64,000 bases of DNA, taken from positions 620,001-684,000 of the forward strand of contig NZ_JAIUCZ020000002.1 in the NCBI RefSeq assembly GCF_020176955.2, given 5' to 3'. Of this stretch, positions 56,824-64,000 are shown piece after piece; the stretch's first letter is position 1; each line of letters starts with the position of its first letter. A model generated the notes under the pieces. The model was given only the letters and a program-made list of their open reading frames with translations. It was not told the origin of the DNA and searched no databases. The position numbers were made by a program, and so were the translations under genes. This stretch comes from Nocardia sp. alder85J (GTDB lineage Bacteria; Actinomycetota; Actinomycetes; Mycobacteriales; Mycobacteriaceae).

Positions 56824-58359
56824 TCACGAGAGCAGCCGGCGCAGCACCTTGTTACCGAAGCCGTGCTTGACCACCATCTCCAGGCTGCGAATCGTCTTCT
56901 CCGAGTACGGATACCAGATGCTCTCCTGCTTCGGCTGCCACCGGTCGATCAGGATCGGCAGCGCGTGGGTGAAGCCGCGCAGCGCGTCCAGGCCGTTGAC
57001 GTGACCGAGACCGCTGTTCTTGCGCCCGCCGAACGGCGCCTCGGGCACGCCGTAGATGACGGCCGCGTCGTTGTGCACCACCGAGCCGGTGGTGAGCCGG
57101 GCGGCGATGCGCCGGGCCTTGACCGCGTCCTTGGTGAACACCGAACCGCTGAGACCGTACTGCGAGTCGTTGGCCATCCGGATCGCCTCCTCCTCGTCGC
57201 GCACCCGCATGATCGCCGCGATCGGGCCGAAGGTCTCCTCGGTCATCAACTCCATCTCGTGGGTCGCGTCGACGACCACGGTGGGCTGGAAGAACAGGCC
57301 GTTGCCGGCCGCGGGCGCGCCGCCGACCACGATGTCGGCGCCCTTGGCCTTGGCGTCGTCGACGTGCCGGGACACGATATCCAGCTGCCGGTCGTAGAAC
57401 AGCGGGCCCATATCGGTGTCGCCGGGACCGTAGGTGACCTCGGCGGCCCGCTTCGACACCAGCCGGATGAACTCGTCGGCGACGCTGTCCACCACGTAGA
57501 TCCGCTCGACGCTCATGCACACCTGCCCGGTGTTGAACATCGACAGGTACACCGCGCCCGCGGCGGCGCGCTCCAGATCGGCGTCGGCGCAGACGATCAT
57601 CGCGTCCTTGCCGCCGAGTTCCAGCGTGCAGGGCAGCAGCCGTTCGGCGCAGGCCGCGGCGATCTTGCGGCCGGTGGCCACGCTGCCGGTGAAGCACACC
57701 TTGTCGACCTCGGCGGCGACCAGGGCCGCGCCGGTCTCGCCGTCACCGTGCACCACCTGCACGACGTCGGGGGGCACGCCTGCCTCGTGCAGGATCTTCA
57801 CCACCCACTCGCCCGAGCGCGGGGTGACCTCCGAGGGCTTGAGCACGGCGGTGTTGCCGGCCAGCAGCGCTTGTACAACAGGGTTGAGCGACAGCACGAA
57901 CGGCCCGTTCCACGGGGTGATCACGCCGACCACGCCCAGCGGCTGATAGTGGATGTACAGCTTCTTCATCGGCTTCAGGTAGCCGTGCAGTGGCTGCCGA
58001 TGCGGCTTCAGGTCGCGCGGGGCGCGGTGGGTCCAGAAGGCGAGGAAATCGCACGACGGCACGATCTCCACCGCCATCGCCTCGGTCTGCGGCTTGCCGG
58101 TCTCCGCGCGGACGGTCGCGATGATCTCGTCGCGCCGGGCCACCAGCACATCGATCGCCGACCGCAGGATGGCGGCCCGCTCGGCCACCGGCCGTGCCGC
58201 CCAAGTGGGTTGGGCCGCCCGCGCCCGCGCCACCGCTGCCGCCACATCCTCGGCGGTGCTCACCTCCACCTCGTCGATACGGTGGCGGTCCACCGGACTG
58301 TCCAGGACGAGCCGCCGCCGGTCACCGGCGGCCGCGGGGGCGGATTGAACGATGGCCAT
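56824..58359 (-). CDS. Aldehyde dehydrogenase (succinate-semialdehyde/coniferyl type)
   Basis: A 511-aa NAD(P)-dependent ALDH with an N-terminal linker. Oxyanion Asn in TPWNGPFVLSLN, general-base Glu in CTLELGGKDAMIV, nucleophilic Cys in FNTGQVCMSVERI, TEETFGPIAAIM and FGGRKNSGLG. The closing NKVLRRLLS is typical of the YneI-like/medium-chain group seen in mycobacteria. It is in the same direction as the HxlR gene, probably in one transcript. The substrate is unknown. Confidence 0.93.
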   Translation of the reverse strand: MAIVQSAPAAAGDRRRLVLDSPVDRHRIDEVEVSTAEDVAAAVARARAAQPTWAARPVAERAAILRSAIDVLVARRDEIIATVRAETGKPQTEAMAVEIVPSCDFLAFWTHRAPRDLKPHRQPLHGYLKPMKKLYIHYQPLGVVGVITPWNGPFVLSLNPVVQALLAGNTAVLKPSEVTPRSGEWVVKILHEAGVPPDVVQVVHGDGETGAALVAAEVDKVCFTGSVATGRKIAAACAERLLPCTLELGGKDAMIVCADADLERAAAGAVYLSMFNTGQVCMSVERIYVVDSVADEFIRLVSKRAAEVTYGPGDTDMGPLFYDRQLDIVSRHVDDAKAKGADIVVGGAPAAGNGLFFQPTVVVDATHEMELMTEETFGPIAAIMRVRDEEEAIRMANDSQYGLSGSVFTKDAVKARRIAARLTTGSVVHNDAAVIYGVPEAPFGGRKNSGLGHVNGLDALRGFTHALPILIDRWQPKQESIWYPYSEKTIRSLEMVVKHGFGNKVLRRLLS

Positions 58360-58464: not shown

Positions 58465-61400
58465 TCACATCGGTGTTCCGAGGTTGTGGTGAACGCGGCG
58501 GTGGATATCGTCGACCTCCGCCTCGCGCAGTACCGAGGAGGTGATCGCGACGAACTGCCCGCACCCGATCGTGGCATGCAATTCGACCAGCGCCCCGAGA
58601 TTGTGCGCCGCGTGGGGAAGGTTCATGCTCAGGCAGTTTCGAAACGCCACGGCGTACCGGCTGACGGCCGACTGAAGTTGTCCTCGCGCGCGGGCGACAT
58701 CTGCCAGAGCACTGCGGGTGGACGCGGCCGCGGCCCGGTCACCGACTCCCTCGTGCAGTGCAAGTGCAAGCGTGAGGCGGCGTTCGGCCTCGGGATGGTC
58801 ACCTCGATCCCGCGCCAGAATGCCGAGATTGTGGTGGCCGAGGGCCATGCTGTGGCGGTCCCCGCCTTCTTCGGCGATCGCGAGAGCGCGGGTGGTGAAG
58901 TCCACGGTCTCGGCATCGCGGCCGCGCTGCTGCGCGAGCACGCCGAGTTGATGGAGCGCCACGTCCGTACTGCGACGATCGCCGATTTCCTCCGCGATGG
59001 CGAGAGCCCGGGTATAGCGGCGTTCGGCCTCGTCGTAGTCCCGGCCGATCGTCGCGAGCGTGCCGAGTTGACCGTGCGCATTGGCCATACCGGCATGGTC
59101 GCCGAGCCCCTCGAAAATGCTGAGCGCCTGGGAATAGCGGTGGCGCGCCTCTCGATAATCGCGGCGATCCTCCGCGAGGAGGCCGAGCCGATGGAAGACA
59201 CTGGCCCGGATCGAGTGCAGGCCGCGTTCGTCCGCGATCGCCAGGGCTCGGATGTAGCGGCGTACCGCTTCGTCGACATCACCCCGCTCCTGAGCGAGTT
59301 CGCCCAGATGACGGTGACAGATGGCCTGGGTGGCCCGATTTCCGAATTTTTCCTCGACGGCGAGGGCCCGGGTGTAGAAGTGTTCGGCGTCGTCGTAGTC
59401 CATCCGGGCTTGTGCGAGCGTACCGAGTTGGTAGTAGAAGTTCCCGCGGCGCCGTGCGTCGGGGGCCAGTCGTTCCAGCGCGTCGCGGGCCAGGCGGGCC
59501 GCCCGGTCCTGCGCACCGATGGTGCTCAGACGACCGCAGGCCACCTCGGTGATGTGCATGGCCGTGTCCAGATCGTCCGCGTGCAGGTAATGATGGCGCG
59601 CTTCGAGCTGGTCGTGGAGCAGGGCGTCGCGGTCCTGCCGCCACATTCGCGCCCGCCATCGCCAGTATTCGCCGGCTCGGTGGTGGGCGCGGCGCAGCTC
59701 GGCGTCGGTGCTGTGATCGGCCAATTCGGCTGCGGTCCCGCGGTGTACGAGCATGTGCCCGGTCTCGGGGTCCACCGAGATGAGACTGCTCGCGGTGCAC
59801 TCGGCGATCAGCGCACCGAGGACCTGCCCGGTGGCGTACGGAGGTGTCACATGCTCCTGGTAGGTGGCGACGGCAGGTGCCAATTCGACCTGCACGGCCG
59901 CGGGCAGGGTCGCCATGTCCAGCACGCCGTCGGGCAGTCTGATGTTGTGGCCGGTGAGGATCGCGGTGATCCGGTCGGCGGCCGCTCGGCATTCGGCACT
60001 TTGCGCGGACTCGTCGAGGTCACCGATCTGGCAGAGCGCGGCGGCGTTGTCGACGGGTTCGCGGTAGACGGACATGCCCAACAGCAGGTGCCGGGCCGCG
60101 GGACTGAGCCCGATGAGCAGATCGGCCAGCAGTATCTCGTTGGAGATGAGGGTTATGGTGGCCGCGATGTGGGTGTCGAGGTCGGCGGTGGCGTCCAGCG
60201 CGGCGTGGGTTTCCGGATGTGCCGCCAAGGTGGCGGCAAGCCGTGCGGTGGTGTCTGCGTAGCGCGCTCGGCCCTGGGCGAGCAGGGCATCGAGATATTC
60301 CAGGCTGCGGGGATGTCCGCCGAGCAGTCGCCACACCTGATCGAACTGGCCGGTTGCGAGCCGGTCGAGGGTCGGTAGCGACCAGATCACCTTGTAGGTT
60401 TCGGCGAGTGTGAGCGGGCCGAGCTGCCGCCACAGCAGTGCGGCCTCGGCACAATCGGGCAGGGTGAACCGATATCGGGTGGTGATCAGCAATCGGCCCG
60501 GCCCCGGCGTGCCGATCCACGCCGCGAGGACATGGGCCATGGTGTCGTCGGCCACGCGGTGATCGGTGTCGAGGTTCTCCTCGAAGTCGTCGAGCAGCAC
60601 CACGACGGGAGCAAGGGGAAAAACCTGCTCACGCAGGATCTTCAGTCGTGTGTTCCACGGCAACCGCACGTCGAGCACTCGCGAGGTGGCTGCCGCGATC
60701 GCCGTTCGGTGCCGATCCGGCCCGGCGGTGCGGGTGTGCCGGCCGACGGCGGTGGCGATCCGGCGGAAGAAGCTGTCCACGTCGAAGTGTCCGGGGACGA
60801 TCGTGACCGGCACCAAGGTGCGCTGGCGGGCGACGAGTTCGGTGGCGAGCGCGGTCTTGCCGATTCCGCCGATGCCGTGCAACACGATTCCGGGATATCG
60901 ATCGCTGGCGAGCTGAGCGGGCAGCAGGCGTTGTTCGCGGCGGCGTCCGAAGAATTCGCCCCTCGCGCGTGCCGCCGGGCCGGGTGGACCCGGCGGCGGT
61001 GGTGTCGGGGGGTGGCCCTCGCCGGAGTACAGCCGGCATTCCGCCGTGGCCGCGAGGATTGTCACCACGCTCCATTCGTCCAGTGCGGCGAGTTGTCTCT
61101 CGTCGGGGACGGTGGAGGTGGCCAGCCGATCGTGCGCGGCCCGGCGGGCCCCGGACACGGCAGCGACGACGTCGGGCGCGCCAGACTGGGCCAGTTGCCG
61201 ATAGGCGTCGGCGAATACGGCGGTGGCGTAGCGATCGGATACCGATGCCTCGGTGCCGATCACCACGTTCGCGCCGCGGGCGACCAGACCGGCGGCCACG
61301 GATTCGATATCGGTGCCGGCGACCGAGGTGTAGCACGCGGACAGGGCGATCACCGGGGGCATCAGCCCGGCGGGGATGGCCTCCGCGGCGAATTCGGCGG

Positions 61401-62124
61401 CGGTGACCGGGCGTTGCGCGCCCTGCTCGTCTTCGAGGACCAGATATCCGGGCTCGCCGTGCCCGGATATGTGCAGGATATGGGCCGGCGATTGTTCGAG
61501 CGCCGCCCGGATCGCATCGGTCGTCGCGAATTCCACGATCCGGATATCGGCGTCGCTGCGGCGCGCATTCCGAACGGCCGCAAGCACATTGAGCAACTCG
61601 TTCTCGTAGTTGAGCGTGACATCCCCGCCGGTGTCGGGCGCGGCGACGGCCACCAGAATTCGCAGGGGACCCGGGATCTCCGGCCACGCCGGCGCGGCGC
61701 CCGCCTTGCGGTACACCGTCACATTCGGGTGCAGGGCGAGCGGGCGATGCCGGGCCGGCTCGATGGCCGCTTCCCAGGGCAGCTCCCCGAACGGACCCGG
61801 CTCGATTCCCAGACGTAGTGGCGCACCGGTGGATTCGGCGGTGGCGATGGTCGCCCACAATGTTTGCGCCACGGTGTCGGGGAGGAACGACGTTGCGATC
61901 AGGGCCGCAGCGCGGCGCAGCGGTTCGCAACCCGGCGGCGCGTCGGTTTCCTCACCCGGAAGGAGGTCGGCGCCGCTGTCGCGATCGCGGCTGTTGCGTG
62001 TCTCGGCCAGGGCGAAGGACAGGCCAGGACTCAATCCCGCATGCGCGGCGCCGACGTCGATGCCCGCACCGCACAGCCGGACCGTGGTGTCAGTGACGGT
62101 CAGCGTCAGGTCCACAGCGCTCAT
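58465..62124 (-). CDS. CHAT protease / NB-ARC / TPR protein
   Basis: A 1219-aa three-part protein. An N-terminal CHAT (caspase-like) domain spans about 100-345 with the catalytic dyad His222 (ILHISGHGEPG) and Cys264 (IALSACYTS). After a Pro-rich linker (370-384) comes an NB-ARC domain with Walker A GIGGIGKT (417-424), Walker B VVVLLDDF and sensor GRLLITTRYRF. The C-terminal about 350 residues are degenerate TPRs of about 40 residues (LAQERGDVDEAVRRYIRALA type). CHAT-STAND proteins are proposed to be sensor proteases that trigger on phage or stress signals; here the gene follows a DUF6338 membrane protein within 22 bp. Confidence 0.92.
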   Translation of the reverse strand: MSAVDLTLTVTDTTVRLCGAGIDVGAAHAGLSPGLSFALAETRNSRDRDSGADLLPGEETDAPPGCEPLRRAAALIATSFLPDTVAQTLWATIATAESTGAPLRLGIEPGPFGELPWEAAIEPARHRPLALHPNVTVYRKAGAAPAWPEIPGPLRILVAVAAPDTGGDVTLNYENELLNVLAAVRNARRSDADIRIVEFATTDAIRAALEQSPAHILHISGHGEPGYLVLEDEQGAQRPVTAAEFAAEAIPAGLMPPVIALSACYTSVAGTDIESVAAGLVARGANVVIGTEASVSDRYATAVFADAYRQLAQSGAPDVVAAVSGARRAAHDRLATSTVPDERQLAALDEWSVVTILAATAECRLYSGEGHPPTPPPPGPPGPAARARGEFFGRRREQRLLPAQLASDRYPGIVLHGIGGIGKTALATELVARQRTLVPVTIVPGHFDVDSFFRRIATAVGRHTRTAGPDRHRTAIAAATSRVLDVRLPWNTRLKILREQVFPLAPVVVLLDDFEENLDTDHRVADDTMAHVLAAWIGTPGPGRLLITTRYRFTLPDCAEAALLWRQLGPLTLAETYKVIWSLPTLDRLATGQFDQVWRLLGGHPRSLEYLDALLAQGRARYADTTARLAATLAAHPETHAALDATADLDTHIAATITLISNEILLADLLIGLSPAARHLLLGMSVYREPVDNAAALCQIGDLDESAQSAECRAAADRITAILTGHNIRLPDGVLDMATLPAAVQVELAPAVATYQEHVTPPYATGQVLGALIAECTASSLISVDPETGHMLVHRGTAAELADHSTDAELRRAHHRAGEYWRWRARMWRQDRDALLHDQLEARHHYLHADDLDTAMHITEVACGRLSTIGAQDRAARLARDALERLAPDARRRGNFYYQLGTLAQARMDYDDAEHFYTRALAVEEKFGNRATQAICHRHLGELAQERGDVDEAVRRYIRALAIADERGLHSIRASVFHRLGLLAEDRRDYREARHRYSQALSIFEGLGDHAGMANAHGQLGTLATIGRDYDEAERRYTRALAIAEEIGDRRSTDVALHQLGVLAQQRGRDAETVDFTTRALAIAEEGGDRHSMALGHHNLGILARDRGDHPEAERRLTLALALHEGVGDRAAAASTRSALADVARARGQLQSAVSRYAVAFRNCLSMNLPHAAHNLGALVELHATIGCGQFVAITSSVLREAEVDDIHRRVHHNLGTPM

Positions 62125-62146
62125 GATGATTCATTGTTGTTGCTGC

Positions 62147-62992
62147 TCAATGTTTTTCGATGGTAGTTTCGGTTCCGTCGCCGCTGTTTCCGGGAGGGGC
62201 GCTGTTTCCGGGAGCTGTGCCGGCTCCGCGCCCGGCGCCGGACCCGGCGGGACCGGCGGCAATCGGGTGGCGATGCGGGCGCCACGATGTCCACCCTTTT
62301 TCCGGAACCGGTTGCCCTCCTGGCGATTCTGCGAGTTGTTCATCGGGTTCGTCCATTCGTTGCAGATCCAGGTATTCGATCTCTTCCCACCGCACGAGCA
62401 CACCACTGGGCAATTGCACCGGCGCAGTGCCGTCGCGGACGACGAACTCGCCGGTTTTCGGATGCACCGCCAGTTGCGTACTCAGATACAGTTCCCCGGC
62501 CTCCGGATATCCGGATGCATACGACATGTCGTCGTCGGTTCCGCCGTAGCGGCCCGCCAGCCAGGTTCCGGATTTCAGCTTGATCCGGACGATATATCTG
62601 TTCTCTCGCGACCACACATGATCCCAGGCGCGTGGATGGGGCGCCCGCCCGTAGAGCCAGCGCGCGATCGGCCAATCTCGATTCGTGGCCAGGCCCATCG
62701 CGGCTCCGATCGCCGCCGGGACGAGAACATAGCCCACGGAAACGGCCTCGAACATCAGCCAGTTCACCAGGCCCCGCCGCAGGTCACCGCTGACCACGAA
62801 GTGCCGATACAGCAGCAGGGCCGGGCCCGAATACACCGCCAGAAATATCGACGAGGCTGCGAACAGACGTACCAGTCGGTCTGGGGAGCCGCCCGTATAG
62901 CTTCCCGCATTGCGCTCGTAGGTCAAGCTGTACGACGCTCCCGGCAATAGCGTCAGCAATGCCACCACGAGCGCCTGAAAGGTCGTGATCAA
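62147..62992 (-). CDS. DUF6338 membrane protein
   Basis: A 281-aa protein: three membrane helices in the first 110 residues (ITTFQALVVALLTLLPGASY; FAASSIFLAVYSGPALLL; MFEAVSVGYVLVPAAIGAAM), then a beta-rich cytoplasmic domain (IVRIKLKSGTWLAGRYGG, GELYLSTQLAVHP) resembling an SH3-like fold, then a Pro/Gly-rich tail. The family fits DUF6338. The start is TTG with GGGGGAA about 8 nt upstream. It is the first gene of an operon with the CHAT/NB-ARC gene, so it may recruit or be the target of that protease. Confidence 0.82.
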   Translation of the reverse strand: MITTFQALVVALLTLLPGASYSLTYERNAGSYTGGSPDRLVRLFAASSIFLAVYSGPALLLYRHFVVSGDLRRGLVNWLMFEAVSVGYVLVPAAIGAAMGLATNRDWPIARWLYGRAPHPRAWDHVWSRENRYIVRIKLKSGTWLAGRYGGTDDDMSYASGYPEAGELYLSTQLAVHPKTGEFVVRDGTAPVQLPSGVLVRWEEIEYLDLQRMDEPDEQLAESPGGQPVPEKGWTSWRPHRHPIAAGPAGSGAGRGAGTAPGNSAPPGNSGDGTETTIEKH

Positions 62993-63017
62993 CGCGGAAT
63001 TCCCCCATATCGGTCAT

Positions 63018-63285
63018 CCGACAGTGCTGGTGGCTCTGCGATTTCGCATCGTTTCATCGTGCTTGCGCGCTGTCAATCCCCGGATTTGTGAAAGGCTCTA
63101 CGCGTGGCCTCGTTTCGAGGCATCGGCCGCACCGGGACTTCGCTGGGCACGTGTAGCATGCGAGCGGGTTCGGTTTCGCCGCCGGGATGGGAATGAAGAA
63201 AATTGTTAGTTATCGATACGAGCTTTGCCGCCCCGGTTGCCGCAGGTGGAATCGGTAGCCGCGACGCCGGTCGGCGGAATCGGCC
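63018..63285. promoter_or_regulatory. Divergent promoter region
   Basis: 268 bp between the DUF6338 gene (minus) and the zinc-ribbon gene (plus). It includes AT-rich patches (GAAGAAAATTGTTAGTTATC) likely to hold promoters. A 21-codon ORF from 63193 ends just before the plus-strand gene and could be a leader or chance. No clear palindrome seen. Confidence 0.4.
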
Positions 63286-64000
63286 GTGAATCGGGTCGAA
63301 CGGGCCGCCGTGGAAGCATGGCGAGCATATACGAAATTTATCGCCGCGCAACATGTGGCATTCGAGCAGCGGCAGCGCGAAAGCCATATCGACTGGCTGC
63401 GTTCCCAGTCCGAGCGCGCGCCCGTCCACTGTGGTCATTGCGGGACGGTGAACGCGCCGCGTTCGTTGAGTTGCGGGAAATGCGGTGCGACCGAAAGATT
63501 GTCACTGATACCGCCGCCGGTCGATCCGCCCGGTAGCGGGCGGCTCGAAGCGGAACCCGTGCCGCGCCGTCGGTCCGATATGATCGGGGTTGCCGCGGCT
63601 TTCGGGATCCTCGCGGTTGCTGTGGGAATCCTTGCGATGGGAGAATTCGCTCTGTTCCATGACACCCAGCATATTCGCTCGGATTCCGCATCGACGGCGA
63701 CTCGCACGACGGTGAGTATTCGGCCGACGATGACCGCGACGCAACCCCCGACCACCATTCGCACGCCGTTACTCGCTCGGCCGGCGGTTCCCGATGACAC
63801 CGTGCGGCCGACGAGCGCCGCGTCGCGAAATACCGGTATCGCCGGACAATGGCAGGACGGCGGGGATTTCATCACTATTACCATGACGAAACAGGGCTCG
63901 TACGTATATCACGTGTGGGCGGGATTCTGCGCCGACATCGGTTCGGGTGCCGAACTCACCGGCGATGATTCCGGTGCCGGCGGCACGGTGTCATTTTGCA
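63286..64000 (+). CDS. Zinc-ribbon membrane protein, partial (runs off the window)
   Basis: An open frame of 238 codons with no stop before the end of the window. The start is GTG; an in-frame TAG 10 codons upstream excludes a longer protein. The N-terminal 50 residues are charged and helical (AWRAYTKFIAAQHVAFEQRQ), followed by a zinc ribbon with two CxxC pairs (CGHCG and CGKCG), one membrane helix (GVAAAFGILAVAVGILAMGE), a Thr/Pro-rich linker and the start of an extracellular beta domain (QWQDGGDFITITMTKQGSYV). It is divergent from the DUF6338/CHAT operon and may be a functional partner. Family not identified. Confidence 0.75.
   Translation, partial: MNRVERAAVEAWRAYTKFIAAQHVAFEQRQRESHIDWLRSQSERAPVHCGHCGTVNAPRSLSCGKCGATERLSLIPPPVDPPGSGRLEAEPVPRRRSDMIGVAAAFGILAVAVGILAMGEFALFHDTQHIRSDSASTATRTTVSIRPTMTATQPPTTIRTPLLARPAVPDDTVRPTSAASRNTGIAGQWQDGGDFITITMTKQGSYVYHVWAGFCADIGSGAELTGDDSGAGGTVSFC

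What the first reader, a model, noticed from the sequence alone, without database searches (positions are those of the whole stretch)
58465..64000. CHAT protease-NLR-TPR protein coupled to DUF6338, with a divergent zinc-ribbon membrane protein
One chain carries a caspase-like CHAT domain with an intact His222/Cys264 dyad, an NB-ARC switch and a TPR sensor, like a self-contained inflammasome. It is 22 bp from a three-helix DUF6338 membrane protein, and a zinc-ribbon single-pass membrane protein is transcribed divergently. Seen: domains, catalytic residues, spacing. Known: CHAT and NLR proteins take part in bacterial defence and cell death. Inferred: the membrane proteins are sensors, anchors or cleavage targets, making a three-gene membrane-linked protease switch.
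Basis: partly seen in the sequence, partly recalled or inferred. Interest (0 to 1): 0.75.

Follow-up and report, generated by a model that had tools for sequence, protein, structure and literature searches.

The report
Caspase-NLR protease beside membrane module
A soil bacterium carries a self-contained caspase-like "death switch" gene next to an unstudied membrane protein that bacteria have repeatedly paired with caspase-like and other defence genes, which makes a testable candidate for a protease-triggered membrane effector.

Summary
Window 58465-62124 (-) encodes a 1219-aa CHAT protease-STAND/NLR-TPR protein with intact H222/C264; 22 bp away is a three-helix DUF6338 protein; a zinc-ribbon protein is divergent. 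The trio is not a conserved unit: the zinc-ribbon gene shows no conserved linkage, and close genus relatives of this CHAT protein lack DUF6338.

Of 35 DUF6338 genes in 31 genomes, 12 have a CHAT domain within 3.4 kb (0.11 expected within 5 kb) and 3 a C14 caspase within 7 kb. On a tree the CHAT link changes 4-6 times or more. All 16 linked CHAT proteins examined keep His and Cys. On plasmids DUF6338 also sits with TIR + caspase (once in Tn7-like cargo) and E2-E1-JAB + MBL genes.

New: 45 of 70 DUF6338 genes are followed at once by a small low-complexity ORF with a [KR]GGY/GYxP motif (half of the CHAT-linked ones lack it). In the window it appears fused, by loss of the stop, as the DUF6338 tail. 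The cytosolic domain models as an Sm/Lsm-like barrel.

Best mechanism (inferred): a protease-controlled membrane effector, analogous to gasdermin-protease pairs.

The parts
58465..62124 (-). CHAT protease-STAND (NLR-like) NTPase-TPR protein, 1219 aa
61129..61872 (-). CHAT domain (aa 85-332); catalytic dyad H222 (codon 61459-61461) and C264 (codon 61333-61335)
   Evidence: PF12770 E 5.8e-18; residues; alignment with 15 other DUF6338-linked and 9 unlinked CHAT proteins
60055..60957 (-). STAND NTPase region (about aa 390-690), P-loop GIGGIGKT at aa 417-424; Apaf-1/CED-4-like by predicted fold
   Evidence: AAA_16/nSTAND6; Foldseek of the whole aa 1-859 model
58654..59448 (-). TPR array (about aa 893-1157), presumed sensor
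62147..62992 (-). DUF6338 membrane protein, 281 aa, three predicted TM helices and an Sm/Lsm-like cytosolic barrel
   Evidence: PF19865; model pLDDT 82; VIA-align Z up to 7.5 to Sm/Lsm/Hfq chains
62351..62644 (-). Sm/Lsm-like domain of DUF6338 (aa 117-214)
62150..62356 (-). C-terminal low-complexity tail of DUF6338 (aa 213-281), probably the fused GGY/GYxP small protein
   Evidence: junction DNA; Smith-Waterman 2 of 1000 shuffles as high; profile HMMs gave no match
63286..64000 (+). Divergent zinc-ribbon single-pass membrane protein (272 aa, ends at window-equivalent 64104); probably not part of the module

Best explanation
The locus pairs a one-chain caspase/NLR switch with a membrane effector unit. 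Shown: a CHAT protease with an intact dyad fused to an Apaf-1/CED-4-like NTPase and TPRs; an adjacent three-helix DUF6338 protein with a predicted Sm-like cytosolic barrel; recurrent, repeatedly established linkage of DUF6338 to CHAT and C14 caspases; a small GGY/GYxP partner behind many DUF6338 genes, which the window appears to carry as a fused tail. Inferred: (1) the TPRs sense infection or damage and the NTPase oligomerises; (2) this activates the CHAT protease; (3) the protease cuts the disordered GGY-type tail (in the window in cis on DUF6338, elsewhere the separate small protein), whose conserved basic-Gly-Gly-Tyr motif would be the cut or docking site; (4) DUF6338 then opens or perforates the inner membrane, perhaps as an Sm-type ring, and the cell stops growing or dies. 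It would work like gasdermin-protease pairs but with a different membrane protein.
For: 12 of 35 DUF6338 places have a CHAT domain within 3.4 kb against 0.11 expected within 5 kb; 3 of 35 have a C14 caspase within 7 kb against 0.05 expected within 10 kb (the expectation assumes even placement along the genome). The CHAT label needs 6 changes on the DUF6338 tree, at least 4 on starred branches; C14 needs 5, at least 4. H and C are kept in 16 of 16 linked CHAT proteins aligned. A GGY/GYxP ORF follows DUF6338 in 45 of 70 loci against 25 of 648 control gene ends, and in 7 of the 9 C14-linked ones. Fusion junction: five relatives have stop then ATG in the same frame where the window reads through. 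10 of 18 opened plasmid or phage records have defence-type genes beside DUF6338: CHAT, TIR + caspase, E2-E1-JAB or JAB/ThiF genes, DUF4062, type I restriction. Fold matches. Proteomics of P. stutzeri found three proline-rich small proteins predicted to share an operon with a DUF6338 gene (PMC10433244, one passage).
Against: Of the 16 other CHAT-linked loci (L047, L050, L053, L058, L059, L073, L127, L148) have no GGY/GYxP ORF downstream by the pattern, and the hit in L066 looks spurious; so the proposed substrate is missing in about half of the CHAT cases. Many DUF6338 genes have no protease nearby: 39 of 65 tree rows carry neither CHAT, C14 nor JAB (some loci are cut by contig ends), some in what reads by eye as housekeeping surroundings. 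Close relatives of the window's CHAT protein do without DUF6338. The window tail lacks an exact GGY (it has PGGQP and EKGW), and two profile HMMs of the small proteins did not match it. The tail is modelled as disorder (pLDDT 51-59), so no docking is seen. Z 7.5 to Sm folds is in the range the tool calls common. The P. stutzeri paper says its three small proteins are not conserved beyond that species. No pore, cleavage, toxicity or phage data exist.
Confidence: 0.37

Rival explanations
1. DUF6338 is a membrane anchor or scaffold: its Sm-like barrel and the GGY/GYxP peptide recruit the CHAT-NLR protease (or TIR-caspase, or E2-E1-JAB enzyme) to the inner membrane, where the protease itself is the killer through broad proteolysis, as reported for the type IV Thoeris caspase.
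For: DUF6338 occurs with systems that already have their own effector: caspase with TIR and an LmuA/Avs1a-like MBL with E2-E1-JAB. Small-barrel folds often bind peptides or RNA (recalled). That the type IV Thoeris caspase degrades cell proteins is stated in PMC12847820 (passage).
Against: 39 of 65 tree rows show no such enzyme beside DUF6338. An anchor alone would not explain why proteases recur among the partners.
Confidence: 0.26
2. DUF6338 and the GGY protein form a stand-alone two-gene system (for example a membrane toxin and its small antidote, or an envelope-stress device) that tends to collect in defence islands; adjacency to CHAT or caspase genes reflects island clustering, not a shared mechanism.
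For: 39 of 65 tree rows have no CHAT, C14 or JAB gene nearby; 8 of 16 other CHAT-linked loci lack the GGY ORF, so the two links can come apart; a phage carries DUF6338 with a 43-aa GYQP protein and no gene named as a protease within 5 kb, though most neighbours are hypothetical; 4-bp overlaps or direct stop-ATG junctions recur.
Against: The matched domains lie 14-340 bp apart in 9 of the 12 CHAT cases, tighter than I would expect of island clustering alone; the window pair is co-directional with a 22-bp gap.
Confidence: 0.26
3. The window's pair is incidental: an NLR-CHAT protein of this genus that happens to lie beside a transferred DUF6338 gene, without functional coupling.
For: Two paralogs of the CHAT protein in the own genome and relatives in six other genus genomes have no DUF6338 match; the segment is bracketed by a partial direct repeat of the neighbouring aldehyde dehydrogenase gene; three relatives show no DNA similarity to the segment beside their copy of that dehydrogenase.
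Against: A related order (DUF6338, small ORF, CHAT) is found in Frankia tisae (L069, CHAT-like ORF by in-box profile) and on a Streptomyces plasmid; 22-bp gap on one strand.
Confidence: 0.11

Closest known systems
Fungal gasdermin-HET-Q2-like two-gene clusters (PMC10989679, section 7 and passages read)
   Same: A protease gene, with a CHAT domain in about 17% of cases and often TPR, ANK or WD40 repeats, next to a membrane-acting protein gene; the protease controls cell death.
   Different: The membrane protein is gasdermin; here it is DUF6338, a three-helix protein with a predicted Sm-like barrel, often with a small GGY/GYxP partner; a bacterium, not a fungus.
Canu caspase-nuclease system and gated nuclease-protease pairs (PMC12799240, abstract and section 8 read)
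   Same: A protease of the caspase family paired with a separately encoded effector whose disordered inserts carry conserved glycines proposed as cut sites; such pairs are repeatedly recruited by unrelated defence systems.
   Different: The effector there is an MBL nuclease; here a membrane protein. Activation by the protease is shown there, not here.
Type IV Thoeris (TIR + caspase; Rousset et al. 2025, not held; described in passages of PMC12847820 and PMC13373217)
   Same: Some DUF6338 units sit beside a ThsB-type TIR and a C14 caspase (tested with Pfam in L126 for TIR, L136 and L161 for both; as annotated in L193).
   Different: No C14 caspase at the window locus: the genome's only PF00656 match is on another contig. 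I saw no description of a DUF6338 partner of these systems in the passages I read; the original paper was not available.
Craspase / Csx29 TPR-CHAT (PMC10028731, passages read)
   Same: TPR-CHAT protease with a His/Cys dyad (H615/C658) that makes one specific cut in a partner encoded in the same locus; structural match.
   Different: There activated by Cas7-11 and RNA; here fused to an NLR-like NTPase, partner a membrane protein.
Bub / E2-E1-JAB operons with CapW-type WYL regulators (PMC13373217, passages read)
   Same: Acinetobacter DUF6338-GYxP units lie downstream of E2-E1-JAB or JAB/ThiF genes with a divergent WYL gene, one with an MBL protein tested.
   Different: No such enzymes were seen beside the window's DUF6338; this marks the breadth of DUF6338 partners.
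Borvo BovA (PADLOC PDLC03831)
   Same: CHAT segment matches, E 2.1e-10.
   Different: Only positions 466-590 of 720 match the window protein (aa 175-302).

Membership tests
CHAT proteases (PF12770, caspase clan) | CHAT domain above the curated cut-off | tested here: met
   65.8 bits against 24
CHAT proteases (PF12770, caspase clan) | Catalytic His and Cys in the expected motifs | tested here: met
   H222 and C264 align with those of 15 other DUF6338-linked CHAT proteins
STAND/NLR (Apaf-1-like) proteins | P-loop NTPase of STAND/AP-ATPase type | tested here: met
   AAA_16 and nSTAND6 over cut-off, P-loop; fold matches Apaf-1 E 1.9e-8 and CED-4 E 4.7e-7. Pfam NB-ARC itself below cut-off.
STAND/NLR (Apaf-1-like) proteins | Ligand-induced oligomerisation | not testable with these tools
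   needs biochemistry
DUF6338 (PF19865) | PF19865 above cut-off | tested here: met
   100.2 bits against 26.5
DUF6338-GGY/GYxP unit (defined here) | Separate small GGY/GYxP ORF directly downstream | tested here: not met
   No room: CHAT starts 22 bp after the DUF6338 stop
DUF6338-GGY/GYxP unit (defined here) | Small protein fused to DUF6338 | tested here: inconclusive
   Junction DNA and local alignment support it; profile HMMs do not
Gasdermin-protease pairs | Gasdermin family membrane protein | tested here: inconclusive
   The neighbour matches only DUF6338 in Pfam above cut-off; the structure listings show Sm/Lsm chains, which does not exclude other folds
Gasdermin-protease pairs | Protease cuts and activates the membrane protein | not testable with these tools
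   needs biochemistry
Type IV Thoeris | C14 caspase in the operon | tested here: not met
   The only PF00656 place in the genome is on contig C3, the locus is on C12
Type IV Thoeris | ThsB-like TIR gene in the operon | not tested
   The window's flanking ORFs were read but not scanned for TIR

The most novel reading that the evidence does not exclude
DUF6338 plus its GGY/GYxP peptide is a previously undescribed, portable, protease-gated membrane effector: a ring-forming Sm-barrel membrane protein held shut by a disordered tail or small protein, recruited independently by CHAT-NLR, TIR-caspase and E2-E1-JAB/MBL defence systems, so that bacteria have a second gasdermin-like executioner with an unrelated fold. 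The window shows the whole circuit compressed into two genes.
Probability: 0.2. Interest if true: 0.88.

Novelty: new variant of a known kind. Interest (0 to 1): 0.62.

Why it matters
If right, a Pfam family of unknown function found in Actinomycetota, Pseudomonadota plasmids and a phage gets a role: the membrane-acting end of caspase-type bacterial immunity. It gives a sharp test (does the CHAT or caspase protease cut the GGY/GYxP protein or the DUF6338 tail?) and a marker for finding more protease-gated effectors. It would also extend the pattern, known for gasdermins and MBL nucleases, of one effector-protease idea reused by unrelated immune systems. DUF6338 was named in only one held paper (search), so the family is nearly unexplored in this library.

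Tried and rejected
Three-gene unit: rejected, no linkage of the zinc-ribbon gene. DUF6338 as an obligatory partner of this CHAT family: rejected. A simple motif scan for CHAT in neighbours flagged only the window and L073, so it was replaced by Pfam PF12770/PF00656 searches of whole genomes. In-box CHAT and C14 profiles were used for named and plasmid loci; they missed L066, which Pfam finds. An in-box profile seeded with the window CHAT found L069, which the Pfam search did not list. Phages: none with the window DUF6338 as query, one with the Proteus one. E. coli genomes: no match with the Proteus DUF6338 DNA. The window's DUF6338 had no PADLOC match at E up to 1; its CHAT protein had only partial ones (TPR, BovA) and the zinc-ribbon protein a weak one (PD-T4-6, E 2.3e-4). 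Viral structure library: one match under E 0.001, an uncharacterised siphovirus protein, not followed. Comparison beside the aldehyde dehydrogenase: three relatives have no DNA similarity to the segment there, but the flanks differ too much to define an insertion point. The idea that DUF6338 resembles MscS (three helices plus Sm-like domain, recalled) was not tested beyond the Foldseek/VIA lists, where no MscS chain is among the rows shown; that excludes nothing. The GGY regular expression was written after seeing the ORFs, so 45 of 70 against 25 of 648 is inflated to an unknown degree; of 38 GG[YH] ORFs, 8 secondary or spurious ones were dropped by eye before the second profile was built (30 left). 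From the tree, 11 loci were left out beforehand (five copies of loci already in, one near-copy, L129, and five fragments or contig-end cases: L051, L063, L070, L156, L162; L070 is C14-linked).
Full report
What is there. The window lies at G000:C12:620001-684000 of a 9.74 Mb genome. Its genus is probably Nocardia: genome G005 of the same genus has a contig of the length and place that came up as Nocardia africana NBRC 100379 in a named record (L133). The CHAT protein (1219 aa, 58465-62124, minus strand) has a CHAT domain, AAA_16/nSTAND6 NTPase and TPRs over the Pfam cut-offs, with H222, C264 and a P-loop. A model of aa 1-859 from ten sequences (mean pLDDT 77) matches SAVED-CHAT (E 1.1e-9), Apaf-1 (1.9e-8), CED-4 (4.7e-7), Craspase TPR-CHAT (about 1e-6), separase (2.8e-5) and plant NLRs (about 4e-5) in the PDB. 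The list gives no ranges, so which part of the model each entry covers is my reading.

DUF6338. The neighbour, 22 bp upstream of the CHAT start, is PF19865. The model from 41 sequences (mean pLDDT 82) has three long N-terminal helices (4-29, 36-67, 78-104) and a beta domain (133-212). Foldseek's best PDB matches are Lsm/Sm proteins with weak E-values (best 0.018). The 50 rows of the VIA-align list are Sm, Lsm, SmAP or Hfq entries or spliceosome complexes (whose matched chains of about 70-100 residues I take to be Sm subunits), but for one hypothetical protein (1ycy) and any small entry that I misread; Z is up to 7.5 over 76 residues. The tool warns that Z under 8 may be only a common arrangement. 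I read it as a probable Sm-like barrel, a fold that in other proteins forms rings of six or seven (recalled).

Linkage. PF19865 is over cut-off at 33 places in 29 of 394 genomes of the class. With two places found with the window protein in the genus (G005, G142) this gives 35 places in 31 genomes. I searched the same genomes for CHAT and C14 domains: 57 CHAT and 17 C14 places in all. Twelve of the 35 DUF6338 places have a CHAT match within 3.4 kb and three a C14 match within 7 kb. A further CHAT-like ORF lies beside DUF6338 in L069 (Frankia tisae). On a tree of 65 DUF6338 domains the CHAT label needs 6 changes (at least 4 on well-supported branches; shuffled mean 15.4) and the C14 label 5 (at least 4), so these pairings arose or were lost several times. 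The window's DUF6338 falls with unlinked and C14-linked ones (support 93, not starred), not with the Streptomyces CHAT-linked clades, so its CHAT pairing looks separate. Thirty-nine of the 65 rows have no CHAT, C14 or JAB gene nearby; some of these loci are cut by contig ends.

The dyad. The 16 DUF6338-linked CHAT proteins aligned, the window's among them, have His and Cys at the catalytic columns; L066, linked by Pfam, was not aligned. Of nine unlinked relatives of the window's CHAT protein two have lost it: L184 has Cys to Ser, L185 has His to Tyr and Cys to Arg.

Relatives of this CHAT protein. There are nine close relatives with 39-50% identity in the alignment: two elsewhere in the own genome and seven places in six other genus genomes, of 148 searched; eight cover nearly all of the 859 aa queried, one (G114) residues 60-707; ten weaker matches follow. 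The DUF6338 matches include none of those six genomes, and the own genome has one DUF6338 place only. L182 starts with a trypsin-like segment, just under the Pfam cut-off. So the family usually works without DUF6338, and the window pair is a local, probably recent association.

Zinc-ribbon protein. In the genus only the own genome and one other (30% over 140 aa) had a match, of 148, and nothing similar was found in the DUF6338 loci searched (best other E 0.083). I do not count it as part of the system.

The small partner. Directly downstream of many DUF6338 genes, often with a 4-bp overlap or with ATG right after the stop, lies a low-complexity ORF of about 45-80 aa. In Actinomycetota it carries [KR]GG[YH] followed by proline-rich sequence: 28 of the 30 sequences have Lys or Arg before GG (my count by eye). 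In Pseudomonadota it carries GYxP repeats and a Pro-Lys-rich end. Such an ORF was found in 45 of 70 loci against 25 of 648 control gene ends in the same loci; the pattern was written after seeing the ORFs, so the contrast is inflated to an unknown degree. It is found in 7 of the 9 C14-linked loci but is missing in 8 of the 16 other CHAT-linked ones, which speaks against it as the general CHAT substrate. A proteomics study of Pseudomonas stutzeri reports three proline-rich small proteins predicted to share an operon with a DUF6338 gene, and says that they are not conserved beyond that species (PMC10433244, one passage).

The window's tail. In five relatives (L072, L132, L136, L139, L142) DUF6338 ends in EY[IL][DE]x[QK]E[YFM], then stop, then the ATG of the small ORF in the same frame; in others the genes overlap by 4 bp. 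The window reads EYLDLQR-M-DEPDEQ... without a stop. The tail is more similar to the small proteins of ten near relatives than shuffled tails are (mean score 50.4 against 37.9, SD 3.7; 2 of 1000 as high). Profile HMMs of the small proteins did not match it, and its GGY is not exact. I think it is a natural fusion; probability about 0.75.

Other contexts. I opened 18 plasmid or phage records with DUF6338, from 14 plasmid records hit by the window protein, 16 hit by the Proteus protein (overlapping) and one phage. Ten of the 18 have a defence-type gene beside it: CHAT (Streptomyces Caat 7-52; BHT-5-2 by in-box profile); TIR + caspase behind Tn7-like transposition genes on Proteus penneri pPp47 (ThsB_TIR confirmed) and, as annotated, on a Curtobacterium plasmid; JAB genes with a WYL gene on Acinetobacter plasmids (four records; in one, E2-E1-JAB and an LmuA/Avs1a-like MBL protein were tested); DUF4062, whose family is reported as TIR-like antiphage NADases (PMC13174449, abstract and passages); and a type I restriction gene. 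In the other eight I saw no such gene named directly beside DUF6338. In named genomes the TIR and C14 genes of Lentzea alba and Rhodococcus sp. 1168 were confirmed with Pfam.

How it most likely works. Shown are the domains, the dyad, the linkage, the small partner and the read-through junction. Inferred are sensing by TPRs, NTPase oligomerisation, protease activation, cutting of the GGY-type tail or protein, and membrane damage by DUF6338. The analogy is with gasdermin-protease pairs: in fungi about 17% of the gasdermin-linked HET-Q2-like proteases carry a CHAT domain (PMC10989679, section 7). The canu caspase-nuclease system has conserved glycines in disordered gates proposed as cut sites (PMC12799240, section 8). 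I give this mechanism 0.37. Rivals are an anchor/scaffold role (0.26), a stand-alone two-gene unit that clusters in islands (0.26), and an incidental neighbour (0.11).

Novelty. DUF6338 is named in one paper of the held library. My other literature searches did not look for it by name, and the original type IV Thoeris paper was not available. So 'undescribed' is limited to this library. I rate it a new variant of a known kind: protease-controlled effector pairs in bacterial immunity.

Noticed in passing
window 57508-58201 and L005 8696-9231 (window-equivalent 64695-65230): The CHAT-DUF6338-zinc-ribbon segment is bracketed by the intact aldehyde dehydrogenase gene and a mosaic direct copy of parts of it (320 bp at 100%, 94 bp at 99%, 131 bp at 91%). 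It may mark an insertion or duplication, or be an assembly fault.
   Followed up: partly
G000:C34:713142-715760 and 748214-750829 (L178, L179): Two paralogs of the CHAT-NLR protein, about 50% identical, lie about 32 kb apart on another contig of the same genome, which has no other DUF6338 place.
   Followed up: partly
L182 5453-9130: A close relative of the CHAT protein has an N-terminal trypsin-like segment (Trypsin_2 E 1.1e-5, just under cut-off): two proteases and an NLR in one chain. Segments at the starts of L181, L183 and L185 look alike by eye.
   Followed up: partly
L184, L185: Two genus relatives of the CHAT protein have lost the catalytic dyad while keeping the rest: possible pseudo-proteases.
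   Followed up: no
L191 5001-5751: Klebsiella phage pJN2-26 carries DUF6338 and a 43-aa GYQP protein, annotated as hypothetical.
   Followed up: partly
L130 1181-6778: Acinetobacter ursingii plasmid: divergent WYL gene, LmuA/Avs1a-like MBL protein, E2-E1-JAB fusion, DUF6338 and GYxP small ORFs in one row.
   Followed up: partly
L058, L059, L053, L060, L063: DUF6338 genes of other clades without the GGY ORF downstream; several have a short ORF just upstream or overlapping instead.
   Followed up: no
L005 11390-17170: To the right of the segment lies a 1926-aa polyketide-synthase-like ORF (AMP-ligase-, ketosynthase- and thioesterase-like by reading only).
   Followed up: no
L187 786-3823: On a Fluviibacter plasmid DUF6338 follows, by 17 bp, a 795-aa protein with an NPPYG motif (methyltransferase-like by eye; no Pfam match).
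   Followed up: no
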